64,000 bases of DNA. Origin: Roseofilum capinflatum BLCC-M114. Lineage in GTDB: Bacteria > Cyanobacteriota > Cyanobacteriia > Cyanobacteriales > Desertifilaceae. Below, one piece after another: positions 51,404 to 58,157 of this stretch. The position numbers were made by a program, and so were the translations under genes. The notes beneath the pieces are model-generated. The model was not told where the DNA came from and made no database searches. It saw only the letters and a program-made list of their open reading frames with translations. The stretch spans positions 1 to 64,000 of the forward strand of contig NZ_JAQOSO010000013.1 in the NCBI RefSeq assembly GCF_030068505.1, in the 5' to 3' direction. The stretch's first letter is position 1. The number at the start of each line of letters is the position of its first letter.

Positions 51404-52180
51404 TTATCTGAGTAACACTTGGGCAACGACGGGAAAGTGATCGGAGATCAACACCCCTTCCCATGGCGATCGCTCGACTTTGGCCGATAGAAGGGAGCAG
51501 CGAGCATCAACGTAAATGGTATCAACGGCATCCCATGCTTGACCGGTGAATTCATGATAGGTGTTTTGCTCTTCTGGGGGAATTTCTGCTAAGGCATCCA
51601 ACCAAGGCAGTTCCTCGCTCGATCCTTGGGCTAAAATTTGTCTGGGTTGACTGTGGGGAGAAGCATTAAAATCTCCCATGAGAAACCGATAGGAGTTGAG
51701 ATCGCCCCATTGATGCAGTTGACTTAAAATCAGTTGGGCGCTCAAGTCTCTGGCTAGGGCGCTGTTATAGTCGAGGTGGGTATTCCAAACGATTATGAGT
51801 TGATTTTCGGGGGTGACAAACTTGCCCCAGGTAACAAATCGAGCTTGATGATTGCCCCAGGAGGGGGTAATACTGCCGGGAGTTTCTGGCGTTTCACTTA
51901 ACCAAAATTCGCCCGATTCCAGACACTTGAGGCGCTGGGCATGATAGAAGATGGCACAGTATTCTCCTCTCCCATTGCCGTGGCGATCGCACCCAATACT
52001 CTGATAGTTGGGTAAGCGACGATGGAGGTCAAGCATTTGATGGGCTAAACATTCTTGGGTTCCGAGAATATCGGGTTGTTCTTGGCCGATCCATCCGGCT
52101 ATGGCTTCCCGTCTCACCTGCCAATTGGCATCCCCTGGATCGGGTTTGTCATAGCGAAGATTAGCAGTAATTAGTTTCAT
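51404..52180 (-). CDS. endonuclease/exonuclease/phosphatase family protein
   Basis: 258 residues from ATG 52180. DNase I-like fold: LITANLRYDKPD, GTQECLAHQMLDL (catalytic Glu), YCAIFYHAQRL, VWNTHLDYNSALAR, FLMGDFNASPHS and ISDHFPVVAQV at the end, with the His and Asp pairs expected of the family. The substrate may be nucleic acid or a phosphoester lipid. The in-frame extension to 52429 is coded by heptamer repeats and the duplicated gene fragment and is not credible. The heptamer array sits directly before the start codon, and no Shine-Dalgarno sequence is visible. Confidence 0.88.
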   Translation of the reverse strand: MKLITANLRYDKPDPGDANWQVRREAIAGWIGQEQPDILGTQECLAHQMLDLHRRLPNYQSIGCDRHGNGRGEYCAIFYHAQRLKCLESGEFWLSETPETPGSITPSWGNHQARFVTWGKFVTPENQLIIVWNTHLDYNSALARDLSAQLILSQLHQWGDLNSYRFLMGDFNASPHSQPRQILAQGSSEELPWLDALAEIPPEEQNTYHEFTGQAWDAVDTIYVDARCSLLSAKVERSPWEGVLISDHFPVVAQVLLR

Positions 52181-52227
52181 TAGGTAATAGGTAATAGGGA
52201 ATAGGTAATAGGCAATAGGCAATAGGG
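52181..52227. repeat. heptamer array TAGGTAA
   Basis: Six consecutive heptamers (TAGGTAA, TAGGTAA, TAGGGAA, TAGGTAA, TAGGCAA, TAGGCAA) and a partial seventh, abutting the start codon of the phosphatase-family gene. A classic cyanobacterial short tandem repeat; its length probably varies between strains. Confidence 0.9.
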
Positions 52228-52250
52228 TTGTGGTACATGGCTTTGAGCCT

Positions 52251-52475
52251 TTAAGACTGTACACCATAACAGCGCGAAGTGCTGTATTGCTCGAAGAGGC
52301 GATGGGTTGCGGGAATGACATTCTCATCGACCTCGAAGGCTCCGGTTTCAATGTCGATCGCCACGATTTTGCCCTCATTTCCGGCTTCGACTTGCTGCCG
52401 AATGCCAGATTCATAGAGTTCTTGCCCACGTCGGGCTAATTCTTCTTTGCTGTAGCGTCGTTGGCGGACTGCCAT
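52251..52475 (-). pseudogene. truncated duplicate of the gene at 53358..53633
   Basis: The first 64 residues are identical to those at 53358..53633 (start MAVRQRRYSKEELARRG); then the frame runs into a CAGCGCGAAGTGCTGTA palindrome and ends after ten unrelated residues. It lies in the left copy of the 238-bp duplication and lacks the C-terminal part and the protease partner gene, so it is a duplication remnant. Confidence 0.8.
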
Positions 52476-52522
52476 AGAATCGTCCTCAGTGATAATTTTG
52501 CCCTTCCATTTTACCGTGAGCG
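52285..52522. repeat. 238-bp direct duplication, left copy
   Basis: Matches 53443..53680 over 238 bases with two differences that I see (GTGATAATT against GTGGTAATT, and CTTCCATT against CTTCGATT). It holds the 5' two-thirds of the small gene and its upstream region, in the same orientation. Confidence 0.92.
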
Positions 52523-52571
52523 ATCGTGGCGATCGCTGAAGACCGGAGCTGGTTGGTCACAACAAGTTAAT

Positions 52572-52694
52572 TCAAAAAACTCTCATATTCATCATGATCT
52601 CCGATCCTAATCCAATAATAATCGTCACCTTTGAATCTTCAGGTGGCAATTGGGCATAGGCTTTCCAGAAATTAGCTGTCGCCAAGGATTTCAT
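52572..52694 (-). pseudogene. deleted HigB/RelE-type toxin
   Basis: The ATG at 52694 lies inside the antitoxin gene end. The first ~20 codons (KSLATANFWKAYAQLPPE) match the N-terminus of a family of cyanobacterial RelE/HigB-like toxins; then the frame changes and the canonical C-terminus, YYWIRIGDHDEYESFLN, is found in another frame down to TAA at 52567. The middle ~45 residues are missing. The toxin is therefore inactive. Confidence 0.7.
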
Positions 52695-52893
52695 CTAGAT
52701 CCCTCACGTTGTTTGCGGCGATATCTTTTTCGGCTTGAGCAATGAGGCGATCTAATTTTCCTGATGCTAAATCTGTTTCAATTTGCCGATCCCACATCTC
52801 ATCAAGATATTCTTGCAGCCACTTTGCCAGATGACGAACTTCACTCTCTGGCAATTGCTTAATAGCTGATTCAACTTCTAGCCGAGTAGTCAT
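52672..52893 (-). CDS. antitoxin-like protein (orphan)
   Basis: 73 residues from ATG 52893 (an in-frame ATG at 52905 adds four). The sequence EVESAIKQLPESEVRHLAKWLQEY and a C-terminal AEKDIAANNVRDLDEILGDS is characteristic of antitoxins of cyanobacterial RelE/HigB pairs. It overlaps the 5' end of a toxin gene that has lost its middle, so it is now an antitoxin without a toxin. Confidence 0.75.
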   Translation of the reverse strand: MTTRLEVESAIKQLPESEVRHLAKWLQEYLDEMWDRQIETDLASGKLDRLIAQAEKDIAANNVRDLDEILGDS

Positions 52894-52992
52894 AGGATAT
52901 TTCACTTCTCAACAGCATTTCTATAGTATCGCCAATTATGGTGGCCGATGGGGGGTTGGAGTGATCGCTGGGGTAGGTGTCCTATCTTGAGA

Positions 52993-53361
52993 TTACAAAG
53001 CTTCTATCTTAACGATACCACCCTCAACAGTATCAACCTGCAATCGATAACCATAGAGTAGCGCCATGCCCAGCAGGGGTTCCGTTTCCGACTCTGCAAT
53101 ATAAATTTCGCGGTACTGCCCATCCCAAATCACGAGCGCGGTGTATAAGTCGAACAAAGTTTCACTGCCATCGCCCAAGGTGACGATATCGGAAGCAATC
53201 CAAGGTAAATTAAGGGTAGTGATGATTGCAGATGATAGAGACAGAAACCCACTAAATCCTGTATCAATTACTGTATCGATAGTTTGCATCTGTCGATTCG
53301 AGATACCGACAACAACAGTAAGTGTTGCTTCACGACGTAAATTCACGACCCCCTGCATCAT
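52993..53361 (-). CDS. clan AA (retropepsin-like) aspartic protease
   Basis: 122 residues with the single-domain retropepsin motif TVIDTGFSGFLSLS (D-T-G) and the following strand VTLGDGSETLFDLYTALVIW; a later ESETEPLLGMALLYGYRLQV matches the psi-loop (I/L-L-G-x). Single-domain members act as homodimers. It overlaps the upstream gene (53358..53633) by 4 bases (ATGA), forming a two-gene operon like many cyanobacterial pairs of a small protein and an aspartic protease. Confidence 0.85.
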   Translation of the reverse strand: MMQGVVNLRREATLTVVVGISNRQMQTIDTVIDTGFSGFLSLSSAIITTLNLPWIASDIVTLGDGSETLFDLYTALVIWDGQYREIYIAESETEPLLGMALLYGYRLQVDTVEGGIVKIEAL

Positions 53362-53633
53362 AGATTTTGCTTTAGACTCCGTGCCCCAAAATGATCGACG
53401 GCGCGATGTCCGATTCTAATTACCCAAGGTTGGGCATCGGGATATTGCTCGAAGAGGCGATGGGTTGCGGGAATGACATTCTCATCGACCTCGAAGGCTC
53501 CGGTTTCAATGTCGATCGCCACGATTTTGCCCTCATTTCCGGCTTCGACTTGCTGCCGAATGCCAGATTCATAGAGTTCTTGCCCACGTCGGGCTAATTC
53601 TTCTTTGCTGTAGCGTCGTTGGCGGACTGCCAT
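53358..53633 (-). CDS. small protein paired with aspartic protease
   Basis: 91 residues. N-terminus basic (VRQRRYSKEELARRGQELYESGI), then GKIVAIDIETGAFEVDEN, and a C-terminal PDAQPWVIRIGHRAVDHFG. It looks like the antitoxin-like partner that commonly precedes clan AA proteases. It overlaps the protease by four bases. The first 215 bases are duplicated at 52251..52475. Confidence 0.75.
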   Translation of the reverse strand: MAVRQRRYSKEELARRGQELYESGIRQQVEAGNEGKIVAIDIETGAFEVDENVIPATHRLFEQYPDAQPWVIRIGHRAVDHFGARSLKQNL

Positions 53634-53680
53634 AGAATCGTCCTCAGTGGTAATTTTGCCCTTCGATTTTACCGTGAGCG
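53443..53680. repeat. 238-bp direct duplication, right copy
   Basis: Partner of 52285..52522. This copy holds the intact gene start and the region up to 47 bases before ATG. The 920 bases between the copies contain an orphan antitoxin and the aspartic protease. Confidence 0.92.
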
Positions 53681-53701
53681 GCTGGAGTTAGGTATGCTAT
53701 C

Positions 53702-53884
53702 TTAGGCTAAAAGGAGCAACAGGATAACGGCGATCGTGAGGCCAAACATGGCTCCTGCACCAAAGTCAGTGTCACTCACTTTCTGTAAGCGGTATTTCTC
53801 GCCTGTGGTAAGGTCGATCGCCTCGTCGTGGTTGGTGCGGATGAGGTGGCGATGATCGCGATCATAGTCAGGATGAGGGTACAT
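53702..53884 (-). CDS. small single-helix membrane protein
   Basis: 60 residues. A His/Asp-rich N-terminus (YPHPDYDRDHRHLIRTNHDEA) and a C-terminal helix GAMFGLTIAVILLLLLA. ATG preceded by ACGGAGAAAAGCC, a good Shine-Dalgarno sequence. Function unknown; topology would place the charged N-terminus in the cytoplasm or on the lumen side. Confidence 0.6.
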   Translation of the reverse strand: MYPHPDYDRDHRHLIRTNHDEAIDLTTGEKYRLQKVSDTDFGAGAMFGLTIAVILLLLLA

Positions 53885-53952
53885 GGCTTTTCTCCGTTGA
53901 TATAGTATGGTTCATGAAACAGGAGCTGAATAATCTCAGCTCCTTGCAAGCA

Positions 53953-54441
53953 TTAGCGCAGCCAAAGAGTAAAACGGAGTTTAGGCTTTGGGGGCAGATG
54001 GATGGCAATCAGCATTGCTTGCTGATTCAAAACGAGTCCAATACGGATAGTTTCGGCTACAAAGGGGCCAAAACTACTTTGGTCAACCAGGATCTGGCTC
54101 TTTTGACGGTTTGTACCCATCAATTCATAAACCAATGATGGGCCAGCGAGCATCTCAATCTCGTCATAAGTCCCGAAAACCATCATTAAGCGATTACTCT
54201 CAGCAGGTGTATTTCCCCAAATTCCCGTTATTGGAAGTTCCGAACCCCCCGAACAACTCTTTCTCACCCAGTCCTGCATCAATTTGTGCCCTTTAACTGG
54301 CACAAATGCCGCGATCTCCGAATCCATAACGGTCAGCCGGTGTTGTGGATCAAAGCTAGGCGATACAACAAGCTCTTGGGGCAGATTTTCAATGGGACTA
54401 CCCACCCTCTCCTGGTAGAGGGCTTTAGATTCTTTGTTCAT
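53953..54441 (-). CDS. hypothetical protein
   Basis: 162 residues. VVSPSFDPQHRLTVMDSEIA, then FVPVKGHKLMQDWVRKSC and a hydrophobic AETIRIGLVLNQQAMLIAIHLP near the end. No motif I recognise. ATG has TAAGGATA upstream. The gene is divergent from the ATPase operon, with an inverted repeat between them, and could belong to the same island. Confidence 0.6.
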   Translation of the reverse strand: MNKESKALYQERVGSPIENLPQELVVSPSFDPQHRLTVMDSEIAAFVPVKGHKLMQDWVRKSCSGGSELPITGIWGNTPAESNRLMMVFGTYDEIEMLAGPSLVYELMGTNRQKSQILVDQSSFGPFVAETIRIGLVLNQQAMLIAIHLPPKPKLRFTLWLR

Positions 54442-54478
54442 TGGTGTATCCTTAAGATAGATCTTTGAGATACGTTTT

Positions 54479-54520
54479 GAAAGCCGCCTCTACGTCCTAA
54501 CCAGATGTAGGGCGGCTTTC
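54479..54520. promoter_or_regulatory. long inverted repeat in the divergent spacer
   Basis: GAAAGCCGCC (54479-54488) pairs with GGCGGCTTTC (54511-54520), with an inner CTACGTC/GATGTAG stem. It lacks a U-tract on either side and lies between divergent genes, so it looks more like a regulatory or cruciform element, or a relic terminator, than an active one. Confidence 0.5.
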
Positions 54521-54643
54521 CTGTATCCACCCCAAATTTAGCATCAACGTTTCAATGCGTCAAGGAATGAAACATTATGAAGCATTAGGTTTTATGTTGG
54601 GAGTATACTAGAACTGTAAACCGATGACTATCCTCAAGGGTCT

Positions 54644-55993
54644 ATGCCCACTCCCCTCGATAACCTGAGTCCCGAAGAGCGGAAAGACTGGCGCGAGCTA
54701 GAGCAACGGCTGCAACAAGCTGGCGGCACGCTCACGGAGGTCAGTCAACGTGAATTAGCAGAGGAGTTCCATGTCTCCCCTGCTACCTTGAAGCGCAGGT
54801 TAGAGAAGTTCAAGGACGAGGGCTTGATTGATGTGGAGGTTGAAGGTAAGGGACGTTACAGCAAAACGACAATTACCCTGAGTGGGTATCAACCGCCATA
54901 TCAGGCATTGAATGAGCGGCCTATGAGTCCCTTAGTTGGAGTGTTGCCCTTGAATTCTCTCTTCCGTCTGGAGCGGGAGGCAGACCGTGCTTGTCAGCAA
55001 GCGTTTCAAATCCCGCGCACTTCCCGGATATTCCTCCGGCTCAAGGGCATCCGGCACAGTGGGAAATCAACCTCCTTGGCAGGTTTACGGGAGTGGCTAG
55101 AGCGAGAACAGGGGCATTGTGTTGGATATGTCAATCTGAGTAGCAGTGCGTTTTCCCCTAATGCTTTTGAGGATTTATCGAAACTGCTGTATGAATTCAC
55201 CAATGTCATTACCACTACCTTTCGGCCCTATCTCCGTAATCGAGAATTACCCGATTTGAAAACCCTTTGGCGCGATGATATTGCCTCCGGTCTCAATTGC
55301 GAAACCTACCTGGCTGACCATGTGTTTAGTCAACTTCCTACCCCTGCCACCCTTTTAATTGATGGATTAGACAAAGTGATAGGTCATCCTTCCACCCAAA
55401 ACGATTTTTGTAATATTCTTCGCACCTGGAATGAGGAGAAAATGAAGAATGTGGGCCAAGGGCCAATCATTTGGCCCAATATCGTGGTTGCCTATTCCAC
55501 CGAACCCTATCCCACCCATGGCATTGTTGGTTCTGTCTTCTACAATGTGGGTCTTGAGATTAACCTTTCAGAACTCACTGAGTCCGAGGTGACTGAACTG
55601 GCTGGCCATTATCAGTTGCCGGATTGGAACTCAAGCAAAACCCAGGAACTTATGAAGTGGGTGGGGGGACATCCGGCACTGATTCAAGAAGCTCTATTTT
55701 ATCTCTCTGGCTCAAAAACCCTAACCATTGCCGATTTAGGCGGGCCGAGATTGGGGTCAGATTTTTTCCGCAATCATCTTTTCGAGAAAATGCAGCTTCT
55801 ACAACCGGAAAAGCCGAGTCCATTGCTGACTTGTTTCCAAACCATCCTCAAGGGAGAAGACTGCCGAGATGAATATGCTAAGTTTCAGCTAGAGCAGGCT
55901 GGGTTGATTCAATTTGAAGCCGGAAAAACAGAAGTAATTGAACTCTATCGGCAGTATTTCGGCAAAGTTTTATCGCCACAAATCCCAAGGTAA
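54644..55993 (+). CDS. winged-helix AAA-like (AAA_35) ATPase
   Basis: 449 residues. The N-terminus (about 28-80) is a winged helix: VSQRELAEEFHVSPATLKRRLEKFKDEGLIDVEVEG. Then comes a P-loop NTPase of the AAA-like/STAND type: Walker A G135-I-R-H-S-G-K-S142, Walker B ATLLIDGLDKV (Asp240), and a C-terminal sensor/winged-helix part (LSELTESEVTELAGHYQLP, MKWVGGHPALIQEALFYLSG) typical of AAA_35 ATPases. It is the first gene of a two-gene operon with another AAA_35 protein 69 bases downstream. DNA binding by the wing suggests autoregulation or DNA sensing; inference. Confidence 0.8.
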   Translation: MPTPLDNLSPEERKDWRELEQRLQQAGGTLTEVSQRELAEEFHVSPATLKRRLEKFKDEGLIDVEVEGKGRYSKTTITLSGYQPPYQALNERPMSPLVGVLPLNSLFRLEREADRACQQAFQIPRTSRIFLRLKGIRHSGKSTSLAGLREWLEREQGHCVGYVNLSSSAFSPNAFEDLSKLLYEFTNVITTTFRPYLRNRELPDLKTLWRDDIASGLNCETYLADHVFSQLPTPATLLIDGLDKVIGHPSTQNDFCNILRTWNEEKMKNVGQGPIIWPNIVVAYSTEPYPTHGIVGSVFYNVGLEINLSELTESEVTELAGHYQLPDWNSSKTQELMKWVGGHPALIQEALFYLSGSKTLTIADLGGPRLGSDFFRNHLFEKMQLLQPEKPSPLLTCFQTILKGEDCRDEYAKFQLEQAGLIQFEAGKTEVIELYRQYFGKVLSPQIPR

Positions 55994-56062
55994 GAAAAGT
56001 CCCCGTTTCTAATACGGATTTAGGGAGATCAATAAAAAATCGGCAATTGGCTAAGGAGAAAG

Positions 56063-57943
56063 ATGGTTAATTACAATTTCTATGCAACTGAAGGAGGAGG
56101 ACTTGAACCAGACGCAAGTACCTATGTGGAGCGTCCCATCGACCAAGAACTCTATGAAGTCCTGAAGTCCTCTGATCGCCGTCACCGCGTCTGTGCTATC
56201 CTTGCCCCCCGGCAGATGGGGAAAACCAGTCTCATGACTCGCACAGCCCATCGCCTCACCGCAGAGGAGACAGCCATCTGCGTTACGATTAATTTGCAAG
56301 GATTGGGAACTGTAGATTCAGAATCAGCTCTGTGGTTCAACCTGCTGCGGCGCATTTGTCAAAAATTAGAAGACTCTACTTTGTTAACGCAACTTGACCA
56401 ATTTTGGCAGCAAAACAATCTTGTTCAACCTTCCAACCGCTTTCTGGAGTTTCTGAAAGATTGCGTGCTACCCAACTTGGCTTCTAAGTTGGTTGTGTTT
56501 TTGGATGAAATCCAAAATCTGGTGCAGTGGGGCGTACAAGATGGGGTAATGGGAGTCTTGCGTTCCTTGGTAGAGGAACAGGACTCTGGTCTGGACAAAC
56601 TGGCTTTTGTTTTGGTGGGGGTGGCTAAACCGAGTGATCTGTTGAAATCGAGTACAACCACAGTCTGGAATGTGGGCACATCCCTGACACTCACGGGGTT
56701 AACTGGGGACTGCGAACCCCTCCTGGAAGGGTTCCGAAATGTATGCCCCAATCCAGGAACGGTCATGGCCGATATTTTACAGTGGACAGGGGGTCAGCCG
56801 TTCCTCACCCAACGGCTATGCCAAGAAGTGAGGAATGCTGCGACACAAGGAACAGAGAGAGAACCAGCCCAGTTGGTTGAGCAGGTGGTGAAAGAACAGA
56901 TTATTGCTAACTGGCGACAGCAGGACAAACAGAACCACCTGCAAACGATTGACTATTGGTTCAATCGGCCATCAGGAGATCGGGACGAGCAGTTGGGCAG
57001 AGTAAAGTTAGCAGCACTTTCTCTGTATCGTCAGTTACTCCAAGAACAACCCGTTCACTTTTGGGGAACCGATCCCCAGTGGGATTTATTGACATCTGGC
57101 TTAGTGGTTAAAGAGGTTCATGGAGATTGTGAATTAAGGATTACAAATCAAATCTATCAGTCCGTGTTTGATTTAGCATGGGTTGAGAGGAAGGAGCAAC
57201 ATCTGAAAGAGCAAGGAGTTGAAATGGAAGATTTAAACAAAATTGTTGACCGAGATACCTTTATGCTCATCGATCAGAGCGGTTCCCTGCTCCGTAATGA
57301 TGGGGGAATAACCAGTCGCTGGGAACGGTTGCAAGAACAGTGCATGGGCGATATCAATGATATTTTGAACTATGACGAAAACGGTCAAAAGATTTGTGAC
57401 CAAATTATCATGATGCCCTACAACGTCAATCGTTATCGGGGCAATCGCTATCAAATTGACAGTCCAGCCCAAGCCGATAGTTTTTTCCCAGAAAATGCGC
57501 CCAAAGGCAATGCTAATGTTACGCCCACTCTACGCGAATGCTATCAGGAGTGGTTGGGGGAACGAGAAAAAATTACTGCCCAAGAGGTAGAAGCGGGTAC
57601 TGCTAGAGGGGCAATGTTTGTCATCTATATTGATGGTCAATTTGATGATTCTCCTGCCTTTGAAGACTTGGTTAAGGAGATGTGCAGCCGCATTGACGAT
57701 CAACGAATTTTTAAGATCATTATTCTGGGCTTTGGTAATGAAGTTAATGCCCGCTATTTTGATGAACTGGATGTAAACCAGCGTAAGGGTAACCCCATTT
57801 TTAGGGATGCCCATGGGAACCCCTCTAATGTGATTGTGTTTGAGTTGGTAGACGAGTTTGAGAATGAAGGGGTAGTCGAGGTGATGGAGCGGCAACTGAT
57901 CGACCCCAACACCACCCGCAAAGGCTTTGGCCAGTATGATTAG
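56063..57943 (+). CDS. AAA_35 ATPase fused to a vWA domain
   Basis: 626 residues. AAA-like ATPase: Walker A A48-P-R-Q-M-G-K-T55 (Gly replaced by Ala at the first position), Walker B LVVFLDEI (Asp148, Glu149), sensor region VLVGVAKPSDLLKSS and GGQPFLTQRLCQEV, then a winged-helix-like linker to about 380. Residues 395-626 form a von Willebrand A domain: DTFMLIDQSGSLL gives the MIDAS D404-x-S406-x-S408, VTPTL (487-489) the Thr, and VIYIDGQFDD the distal Asp524. RBS AAGGAGA precedes ATG. In most AAA_35 proteins WD40 or TPR repeats follow the ATPase; a vWA is unusual. Confidence 0.85.
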   Translation: MVNYNFYATEGGGLEPDASTYVERPIDQELYEVLKSSDRRHRVCAILAPRQMGKTSLMTRTAHRLTAEETAICVTINLQGLGTVDSESALWFNLLRRICQKLEDSTLLTQLDQFWQQNNLVQPSNRFLEFLKDCVLPNLASKLVVFLDEIQNLVQWGVQDGVMGVLRSLVEEQDSGLDKLAFVLVGVAKPSDLLKSSTTTVWNVGTSLTLTGLTGDCEPLLEGFRNVCPNPGTVMADILQWTGGQPFLTQRLCQEVRNAATQGTEREPAQLVEQVVKEQIIANWRQQDKQNHLQTIDYWFNRPSGDRDEQLGRVKLAALSLYRQLLQEQPVHFWGTDPQWDLLTSGLVVKEVHGDCELRITNQIYQSVFDLAWVERKEQHLKEQGVEMEDLNKIVDRDTFMLIDQSGSLLRNDGGITSRWERLQEQCMGDINDILNYDENGQKICDQIIMMPYNVNRYRGNRYQIDSPAQADSFFPENAPKGNANVTPTLRECYQEWLGEREKITAQEVEAGTARGAMFVIYIDGQFDDSPAFEDLVKEMCSRIDDQRIFKIIILGFGNEVNARYFDELDVNQRKGNPIFRDAHGNPSNVIVFELVDEFENEGVVEVMERQLIDPNTTRKGFGQYD

Positions 57944-58157
57944 CCTGCGCGATGGTTGAATGGTCATATGGGGAGAGTGGGGCGATCGCCCTGAATCAGA
58001 CAGAGGAATGGAGCGATCGCCATCTATGTTAACTCCGAATTTGAACCGACATCAATAAACAAGTCATTTGCACGCCACCTAGGGGAGACAAAATCACTGG
58101 CTTATCAGCACTATTAACTTGGATTTTCAGCTCTTGAGACGGAGGAGCCTTTGAGAA

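What the first reader, a model, noticed from the sequence alone, without database searches (positions are those of the whole stretch)
54644..57943. Two-gene ATPase system: winged-helix AAA_35 plus AAA_35-vWA fusion
Seen: two adjacent AAA-like ATPases 69 bp apart, both with Walker A/B; the first starts with a winged helix, the second ends in a vWA domain with intact MIDAS residues (D404, S406, S408, T487, D524). It lies in an island with toxin-antitoxin debris and duplications. In most AAA_35 proteins WD40 or TPR repeats follow the ATPase; a vWA domain in that place suggests metal-dependent protein binding by a sensor ATPase. This resembles the logic of vWA/ATPase conflict systems, but I know of no named system with this pair.
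Basis: partly seen in the sequence, partly recalled or inferred. Interest (0 to 1): 0.75.

Follow-up and report, generated by a model that had tools for sequence, protein, structure and literature searches.

The report
Split two-ATPase switch with vWA sensor
Two neighbouring cyanobacterial genes encode a matched pair of immune-receptor-like ATPases, one with a DNA-binding head and one with a metal-dependent binding tail; they seem to belong to a large, little-described class of paired switches whose end domains are swapped like plug-in modules.

Summary
Gene 1 (54644-55993) is HTH + AAA_35; gene 2 (56063-57943) is AAA_35 + vWA. AlphaFold2 models and fold searches show STAND/NB-ARC-like ATPase cores in both and a vWA fold at gene-2 residues 397-615. 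In 388 genomes of the order at least 29 ATPase-vWA copies were listed; 27 have a gene-1 homologue in the fetched stretch, 20 directly upstream. The window pair sits on a ~6 kb segment absent at the matching site of four sister species. Best reading: a split, NLR-like ATP switch with a vWA sensor and an HTH output. Defence is plausible, not shown; no MoxR gene is nearby.

The parts
54644..55993 (+). Gene 1 (P1): N-terminal winged HTH (about aa 10-80) + AAA_35/STAND-like ATPase (aa 94-441), 449 aa
55061..55069 (+). Gene 1 Walker A G140-K141-S142, intact
55361..55366 (+). Gene 1 Walker B D240-G241: Gly where the catalytic Glu should be; Glu absent in 33 of 33 distinct homologues
56063..57943 (+). 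Gene 2 (P2): AAA_35/STAND-like ATPase (aa 5-371) + vWA (aa 397-615), 626 aa
56204..56227 (+). Gene 2 Walker A APRQMGKT (aa 48-55)
56504..56509 (+). Gene 2 Walker B D148-E149, canonical
57251..57907 (+). vWA domain of gene 2 (aa 397-615)
57272..57286 (+). MIDAS motif D404-Q-S406-G-S408
57527..57529 (+). Likely MIDAS threonine T489 (in place of T487)
   Evidence: by conservation only
57632..57634 (+). MIDAS D524
52178..58142 (.). About 6-kb segment holding the pair; absent at the matching site of G001, G002 and G003, and in G005 together with 0.6 kb of the left flank
52285..53680 (.). Two 238-nt copies (52285-52522 and 53443-53680, 99% identical) in the segment, around a clan-AA aspartic-protease gene (52993-53361)

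Best explanation
The two genes encode the halves of a split STAND (NLR-like) molecular switch. P1 (HTH-NTPase) and P2 (NTPase-vWA) form a heteromeric ATPase. P1 should bind ATP but hydrolyse it poorly or not at all, since it lacks the catalytic glutamate; P2 is the hydrolysing, timing subunit. The vWA is the sensing or gripping end: through its MIDAS metal it binds an acidic or extended peptide of a target. Ligand binding and nucleotide exchange in P2 drive assembly with P1, so that several HTH domains are presented together and bind DNA, giving a transcriptional or autoregulatory output. Shown here: domains and predicted folds, conserved pairing and order, asymmetric Walker B, module swapping, fusion proteins, patchy distribution. 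Inferred: the heteromer, which end senses and which end acts, the ATP cycle, the DNA output. The likely setting is biological conflict (phage or other invader), also inferred.
For: Pairing: at least 29 ATPase-vWA copies in 27 of 388 genomes (at most 3 candidates per genome were scored and the list is cut); 27 of 29 have a gene-1 homologue in the fetched stretch, 20 directly upstream and 7 in a larger cluster. From the other side, 35 gene-1 copies in 33 of 388 genomes, 30 of them with a vWA module at the locus, one broken locus included. Folds: both cores best match archaeal ATPases 2qen and 2fna, then CED-4 and plant NLRs. Asymmetry: Glu missing in 33/33 gene 1, kept in 21/21 two-gene partners. 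Fusions that join the ends: HTH-vWA proteins, HTH-AAA_35-vWA in Symploca (L137), HTH-NB-ARC-vWA in Tolypothrix (L133). The HTH of gene-1 proteins aligns with that of HTH-vWA proteins over 91 columns (hhalign probability 99.8, E 2e-28). Module exchange at one site, G003 against G005, with the break at gene-2 aa ~405. Co-divergence r = 0.97 over 18 pairs, 0 of 2000 permutations as high. General class: 46 of 65 P2-type AAA_35 have a P1-type within 10 kb; random placement mean 1.1, maximum 7 in 2000 trials. P1 heads seen: GerE-HTH+TIR, trypsin+TIR, cyclase+TIR, patatin; P2 tails seen: WD40, CHAT, amidase (ten proteins).
Against: No complex was modelled or measured. The window's own winged HTH is not among the 17 of 33 gene-1 proteins whose HTH hits the HTH-vWA profile. 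Loss of the Glu need not abolish hydrolysis. The mirror correlation can come from shared descent. 19 of 65 P2-type proteins had no P1-type within 10 kb, and 5 of 20 chosen P2-type loci showed none in the stretch. Two ATPase-vWA loci (G099, G100) show no gene 1 in the fetched stretch. No regular defence neighbours were found and PADLOC matches to the two proteins are weak and partial. Loci in two families (L050, L101, L051) share the same neighbour genes, so not all copies look mobile.
Confidence: 0.55

Rival explanations
1. An anti-phage, abortive-infection-like system in which the tail of gene 2 is or holds the effector, and gene 1 is sensor and autorepressor.
For: Patchy presence, island setting and decaying copies; the second ATPase elsewhere carries HEPN_Swt1 plus dynamin, CHAT or amidase tails, which look like effectors; PemK/MazF-type toxin genes beside two loci (L053, L108, ten flanking proteins scanned).
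Against: A vWA has no toxic activity that I know of (recalled); few PADLOC neighbours and no control set; in viral contigs only one relative, matching the AAA part alone; on plasmids no match covering 80% of gene 2, though 41 records match its AAA part.
Confidence: 0.25
2. A chaperone-like remodelling machine: P2 works as ATPase plus vWA co-chaperone (like MoxR with its vWA partners) on a cellular client, with gene 1 as regulatory subunit.
For: MIDAS residues kept; ATPase plus vWA is a known client-remodelling couple (Kaur 2020, section 8); dynamin and DO-GTPase2 genes in the larger clusters suggest remodelling of complexes.
Against: STAND-like, not MoxR-clade, cores; no MoxR match on the window's contig; no conserved client gene beside the pair among the flanks compared.
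Confidence: 0.2

Closest known systems
STAND NTPases (CED-4/Apaf-1/plant NLR, MalT, bacterial Avs)
   Same: NB-ARC-like ATPase core in both proteins; a domain for output at one end and one for sensing at the other
   Different: Split over two proteins; one half lacks the catalytic Glu; a vWA stands where repeats usually are
MoxR-vWA ternary conflict systems (VMAP, iSTAND, iSTAND2, TERNS3; Kaur et al. 2020 and 2021, sections and passages seen)
   Same: ATPase plus vWA, an inactive STAND partner in some, modular tails, found in filamentous cyanobacteria
   Different: No MoxR gene on the contig; the vWA is fused to an AAA_35/STAND-like ATPase; nothing follows the vWA
AAA_35-WD40 proteins of cyanobacteria
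   Same: Same ATPase family; second-type AAA_35 proteins are mostly near a first-type one too (46 of 65)
   Different: vWA instead of WD40; the first partner has lost its catalytic Glu in 33 of 33, against 4 of 15 in other pairs
DO-GTPase systems (Kaur et al. 2020)
   Same: A larger relative holds a DO-GTPase2 gene (PF19993, E 2e-11, L109)
   Different: Dynamin and AAA_35 partners instead; the ~300-aa neighbour gave no Pfam hit and was not tested against GAP1; the window pair has no GTPase; the paper calls DO-GTPase systems nearly absent from cyanobacteria

Membership tests
Pfam AAA_35 (PF14516) | Score over the curated cut-off of 27 bits | tested here: met
   173 and 78 bits
STAND NTPase | NB-ARC-like ATPase fold | tested here: met
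   Predicted models only: 2qen Z 20.1 (gene 2) and 18.3 (gene 1); CED-4 and NLR chains Z 15 to 18
STAND NTPase | Second acidic residue in Walker B, gene 2 | tested here: met
   D148-E149; DE in 21/21 two-gene partners
STAND NTPase | Second acidic residue in Walker B, gene 1 | tested here: not met
   D240-G241; Glu absent in 33/33
STAND NTPase | C-terminal sensor repeats | tested here: not met
   A vWA is at that place; WD40 is there in some other pairs
MoxR-vWA ternary systems | MoxR ATPase encoded beside the vWA gene | tested here: not met
   AAA_3 matches on C40 and (below cut-off) C84, bpMoxR on C40; the window is on C13
MoxR-vWA ternary systems | Third component VMAP, iSTAND, iSTAND2 or TERNS3 | tested here: inconclusive
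   No such Pfam name among the nine window proteins and ten flanking proteins scanned; gene 1 could be called an inactive STAND, but it was not compared with iSTAND profiles
vWA domain | vWA fold with MIDAS DxSxS, Thr and Asp | tested here: met
TerY-like vWA | Clear sequence kinship | tested here: inconclusive
   Only weak hits (23-28% identity) to ~210-aa, often tandem genes; the name TerY is recalled, from no call
Known defence systems (PADLOC 2023) | Strong full-length match | tested here: not met
   Best E 5e-4 (HTH part of a CARF model) and 1.1e-3 (P-loop part of PDC-S01)

The most novel reading that the evidence does not exclude
Cyanobacteria hold a large class of split NLRs: tandem AAA_35/STAND pairs in which P1 carries the output head (HTH, TIR, trypsin, cyclase, patatin) and P2 the sensor or second effector tail (WD40, vWA, CHAT, amidase, HEPN-dynamin). 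They work as obligate heteromers, like paired plant NLRs, and exchange the tail as a cassette. The window pair is the vWA branch, in which P1 has become a catalytically dead subunit.
Probability: 0.45. Interest if true: 0.82.

Novelty: new variant of a known kind. Interest (0 to 1): 0.64.

Why it matters
Paired NLRs (sensor plus helper) are central to plant immunity. A bacterial class of paired STAND-like ATPases (up to 21 AAA_35 matches in one of 16 genomes) with exchangeable ends would be a simple system for asking how a two-ATPase receptor divides sensing, timing and output, and would suggest a function for many proteins that records name only 'AAA-like domain-containing protein'.

Tried and rejected
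MoxR-vWA membership: rejected for lack of a MoxR match near the pair. A conserved third gene beside the two-gene loci: not found among 97 flanking proteins of 18 loci compared with each other; the genes that recur beside L050, L051 and L101 gave no Pfam hit where scanned and look like lipoprotein or housekeeping genes to me. A regular defence island: not shown; 78 of the 97 flanking proteins were scanned (those of L109, L111, L113 and L114 left out); 53 PADLOC models matched, 25 were shown, each with one member; no control set. PHROGs: no hit at E 0.001 for either window protein. No PDB sequence matched the gene-1 profile at E 0.1; the vWA profile's best was Plasmodium TRAP, E 4.8e-4. Promoter-like and terminator-like sites were within about one standard deviation of shuffles. 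I saw no target-site duplication at the segment's edges. A roadblock-like reading of the exchanged tail in G004/G005 was my own guess; Pfam gave nothing over a cut-off, so I drop it. That the short ORF 52672-52905 is an antitoxin is also only an impression; its best matches are E 0.011 and 0.013.

Papers: nine searches. In the titles, abstract starts and passages that I saw, nothing describes AAA_35 pairs. The whole-word search for AAA_35 gave five papers, four of them on other subjects by title; the fifth, PMC11119718, names it once (one passage). Of Kaur 2020 (PMC7159879) I saw the abstract, sections 8, 20, 27 and 29, and passages; of Kaur 2021 (PMC8195603) and PMC10907252 passages only. The library is open-access only, so absence from print is not shown.

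Rows dropped or choices before counts: identical proteins were counted once; its nine ATPase-vWA proteins outside the two-gene form are seven from larger clusters plus L090 and L091. In one search loci L095-L098, L116, L117, L124, L128, L134, L136, L137, L142, L145, L179, L182 and L183 were left out as redundant or broken, and the script's group P2other holds six AAA_35-dynamin and two exchanged-tail proteins that it did not label apart; the tree was the quick method and warned of long branches, the window's gene 1 among them. One search used 18 of 21 two-gene loci (three near-copies left out). The 20 loci were picked by me from the top of the list, not at random; the 16 genomes were picked for having few contigs. 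In one search the cut of 150 bits between the two types was set by eye, and rows of broken copies are included.
Full report
What is there. Two co-directional genes 69 bp apart encode a 449-aa and a 626-aa protein. Pfam gives HTH_24 plus AAA_35 for gene 1 and AAA_35 for gene 2. The vWA end of gene 2 escapes Pfam in the window protein at E up to 1 but is hit in relatives. The AlphaFold2 model of gene 2 (25-row alignment, mean pLDDT 85.4, pTM 0.71) aligns at residues 5-371 with archaeal ATPases 2qen and 2fna (Z 20.1 and 18.6) and with CED-4 and plant NLRs (Z about 15-16), and at 397-615 with the vWA domains of RGLG1 (6k88, Z 16.5, rmsd 2.8, 184 residues), BON1 and Rpn10 (Z about 15-16). Gene 1 (10-row alignment, pLDDT 80.1, pTM 0.68) aligns at 94-441 with the same ATPases (2qen Z 18.3; CED-4 Z 17.6). 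Both are STAND-like, one with a DNA-binding head and one with a vWA tail. These are predicted models.

Recurrence. A search of 59 relatives with the vWA domain gave matches in 45, most of them weak; six further long ATPase-vWA frames stood out, and in all seven loci, the window included, a gene-1 homologue (34-41% identity) lies directly upstream. A profile search of 388 genomes of the order listed 29 ATPase-vWA copies in 27 genomes, a lower bound because at most three candidates per genome were scored and the list was cut. With the DNA fetched, 27 of 29 have a gene-1 homologue in the stretch: 20 directly upstream, 7 at the head of a larger cluster. G099 and G100 show dynamin, GTPase and a third gene beside the ATPase-vWA gene and no gene 1 in the stretch. 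Searched from gene 1, 33 of 388 genomes (17 of 149 genera) hold 35 copies: 20 with ATPase-vWA, 7 in the larger cluster, two with another tail (G004, G005), one with the dynamin cluster and no vWA in the stretch (G296), one with the dynamin cluster and two stand-alone vWA genes (G284), one fused directly to the vWA (G121), two broken loci (G331, G348) and one at a contig end (G374). A sample of 386 genomes of the phylum gave 6 with gene 1, all in the same order. A scan of 84,980 species with two narrow peptide patterns of the vWA returned 32 loci, all cyanobacterial by title; 9 of these 32 are ATPase-vWA loci, counting L128 and L119, the rest being other architectures or fragments.

Asymmetry. 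In 33 of 33 distinct gene-1 proteins the catalytic Glu of Walker B is absent (31 DG, 1 EG, 1 DN) while the P-loop is kept, one with K to R. In 21 of 21 two-gene partners DE is kept. In the larger clusters the AAA_35-dynamin protein downstream of gene 1 keeps DE in 8 of 8, while the ATPase-vWA decays (DE in 3 of 9, the two loci without gene 1 included) and in L114 and L115 loses the first MIDAS Asp. In other AAA_35 pairs the first type keeps the Glu in 11 of 15 readable cases and the second in 26 of 26. One fully canonical ATPase per pair is a consistent reading.

Exchanged ends. Seven loci (L109-L115) show a larger form: gene 1, AAA_35-dynamin, a small GTPase, an unannotated protein of about 250-390 aa, and ATPase-vWA. 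HEPN_Swt1 was found in three of five AAA_35-dynamin proteins scanned; the GTPase of L109 is DO-GTPase2; in L110 and L111 other genes lie between. In the window's genus, the window and G003 have ATPase-vWA, G004 and G005 another tail, G001 and G002 no gene 1 at the threshold. G003 and G005 hold the pair at the same site: DNA is 87% identical up to residue ~405 of gene 2 in both, with matching flanks further out; after that point G003 has the vWA and G005 a tail of about 146 aa without a vWA profile match. The tail of G004 corresponds to a small separate gene of G005. The same vWA family occurs in HTH-vWA proteins (own genome C115 and others), HTH-NB-ARC-vWA (L133), beside an FGE-sulfatase domain (L146), alone near a kinase gene (L118), and fused to gene 1 in Symploca (L137). 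The HTH of 17 of 33 gene-1 proteins is recognised by the HTH-vWA profile, the window's winged version not among them; the profile-profile match covers 91 columns.

A general class. The own genome has six AAA_35 matches, five over the cut-off; four of the five form two head-to-tail pairs (this one, and GerE-TIR-AAA_35 followed by AAA_35-X on C51). Of 20 second-type AAA_35 loci that I chose, 13 have a first-type as the next AAA_35 gene upstream on the same strand, 1 downstream, 1 an edge fragment and 5 none; three of the five have under 2 kb of upstream DNA in the stretch. In 16 genomes with few contigs, 46 of 65 second-type matches have a first-type within 10 kb (random placement: mean 1.1, maximum 7 in 2000 trials), 26 of 65 have it as nearest upstream AAA_35 on the same strand within 6 kb, and 38 of 61 first-type matches have a second-type within 10 kb. 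A quick tree of 110 ATPase domains separates the two types (SH-aLRT 100); gene 1 of the vWA/dynamin group is one clade (100), its partners one clade at 94. Heads and tails seen in ten proteins scanned: GerE+TIR, trypsin+TIR, cyclase+TIR, patatin; WD40, CHAT, amidase.

Mobility. Window 52178-58142 is missing at the matching site of G001, G002 and G003, where the flanks lie 12 to 71 bp apart; G005 lacks it with 0.6 kb of the left flank; in G004 only the right flank matched, at 68%. The pairs of G003 and G005 lie on other contigs than this site. The segment also holds a clan-AA protease gene and a 238-nt duplication. Against general mobility, L050, L101 and L051, of two families, share neighbour genes. 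The genus is inferred to be Roseofilum: G003, of the same genus, has the contig length and gene content of R. halophilum BLCC-M91.

How it most likely works. By established STAND logic (recalled), ligand binding at the C-terminal end releases ADP, ATP binding drives assembly, and the N-terminal domains act by proximity. Here the chain is split: gene 2 senses through its vWA and hydrolyses; gene 1 binds ATP with little or no turnover and presents the HTH. Shown: anatomy, pairing, asymmetry, exchange of ends. Inferred: heteromer, direction of signal, DNA output, conflict role.

What is known. Kaur 2020 describes MoxR-vWA, iSTAND and DO-GTPase systems and says the last are nearly absent from cyanobacteria; 'dynamin' and 'AAA_35' do not occur in its main text. 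Kaur 2021 adds iSTAND2 and TERNS3 as MoxR-vWA systems (passages). I found no description of the pairs in what I saw of the searches.

Noticed in passing
L109-L115 (G080, G173, G214, G246, G187, G081, G233): Larger cluster: gene 1, AAA_35-(HEPN)-dynamin, small GTPase (DO-GTPase2 in L109), unannotated protein starting MDIYVQSRGF or similar, ATPase-vWA; I did not find it described.
   Followed up: partly
L092:4641-6296 and L053:6135-8099: Sister species carry different C-terminal domains on gene 2 at the same genomic site, with the break at residue ~405.
   Followed up: yes
L137:7570-9735 (Symploca), same locus as L180: Single protein joining a gene-1-type HTH-AAA_35 directly to the vWA.
   Followed up: partly
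L133:7795-9642 (Tolypothrix): HTH + NB-ARC + the same vWA in one protein.
   Followed up: partly
L179 (G348): The whole larger cluster is present as broken pieces, which points to a dispensable system.
   Followed up: no
window 52285-52522 and 53443-53680: 238-nt duplication, 99% identical, inside the segment; the first copy abuts the start of the preceding gene.
   Followed up: no
L015:2648-6992 (own genome, contig C51): Second pair of the same genome: GerE-TIR-AAA_35 followed by AAA_35 with an unknown tail of about 450 aa.
   Followed up: partly
L100:8872-10633 (G101): Two stand-alone copies of the vWA module directly downstream of the pair.
   Followed up: no
L005:1345-1872 (own genome, contig C11): The C-terminal half of the vWA module is joined to an unrelated N-terminus of about 55 aa in one short ORF.
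   Followed up: no
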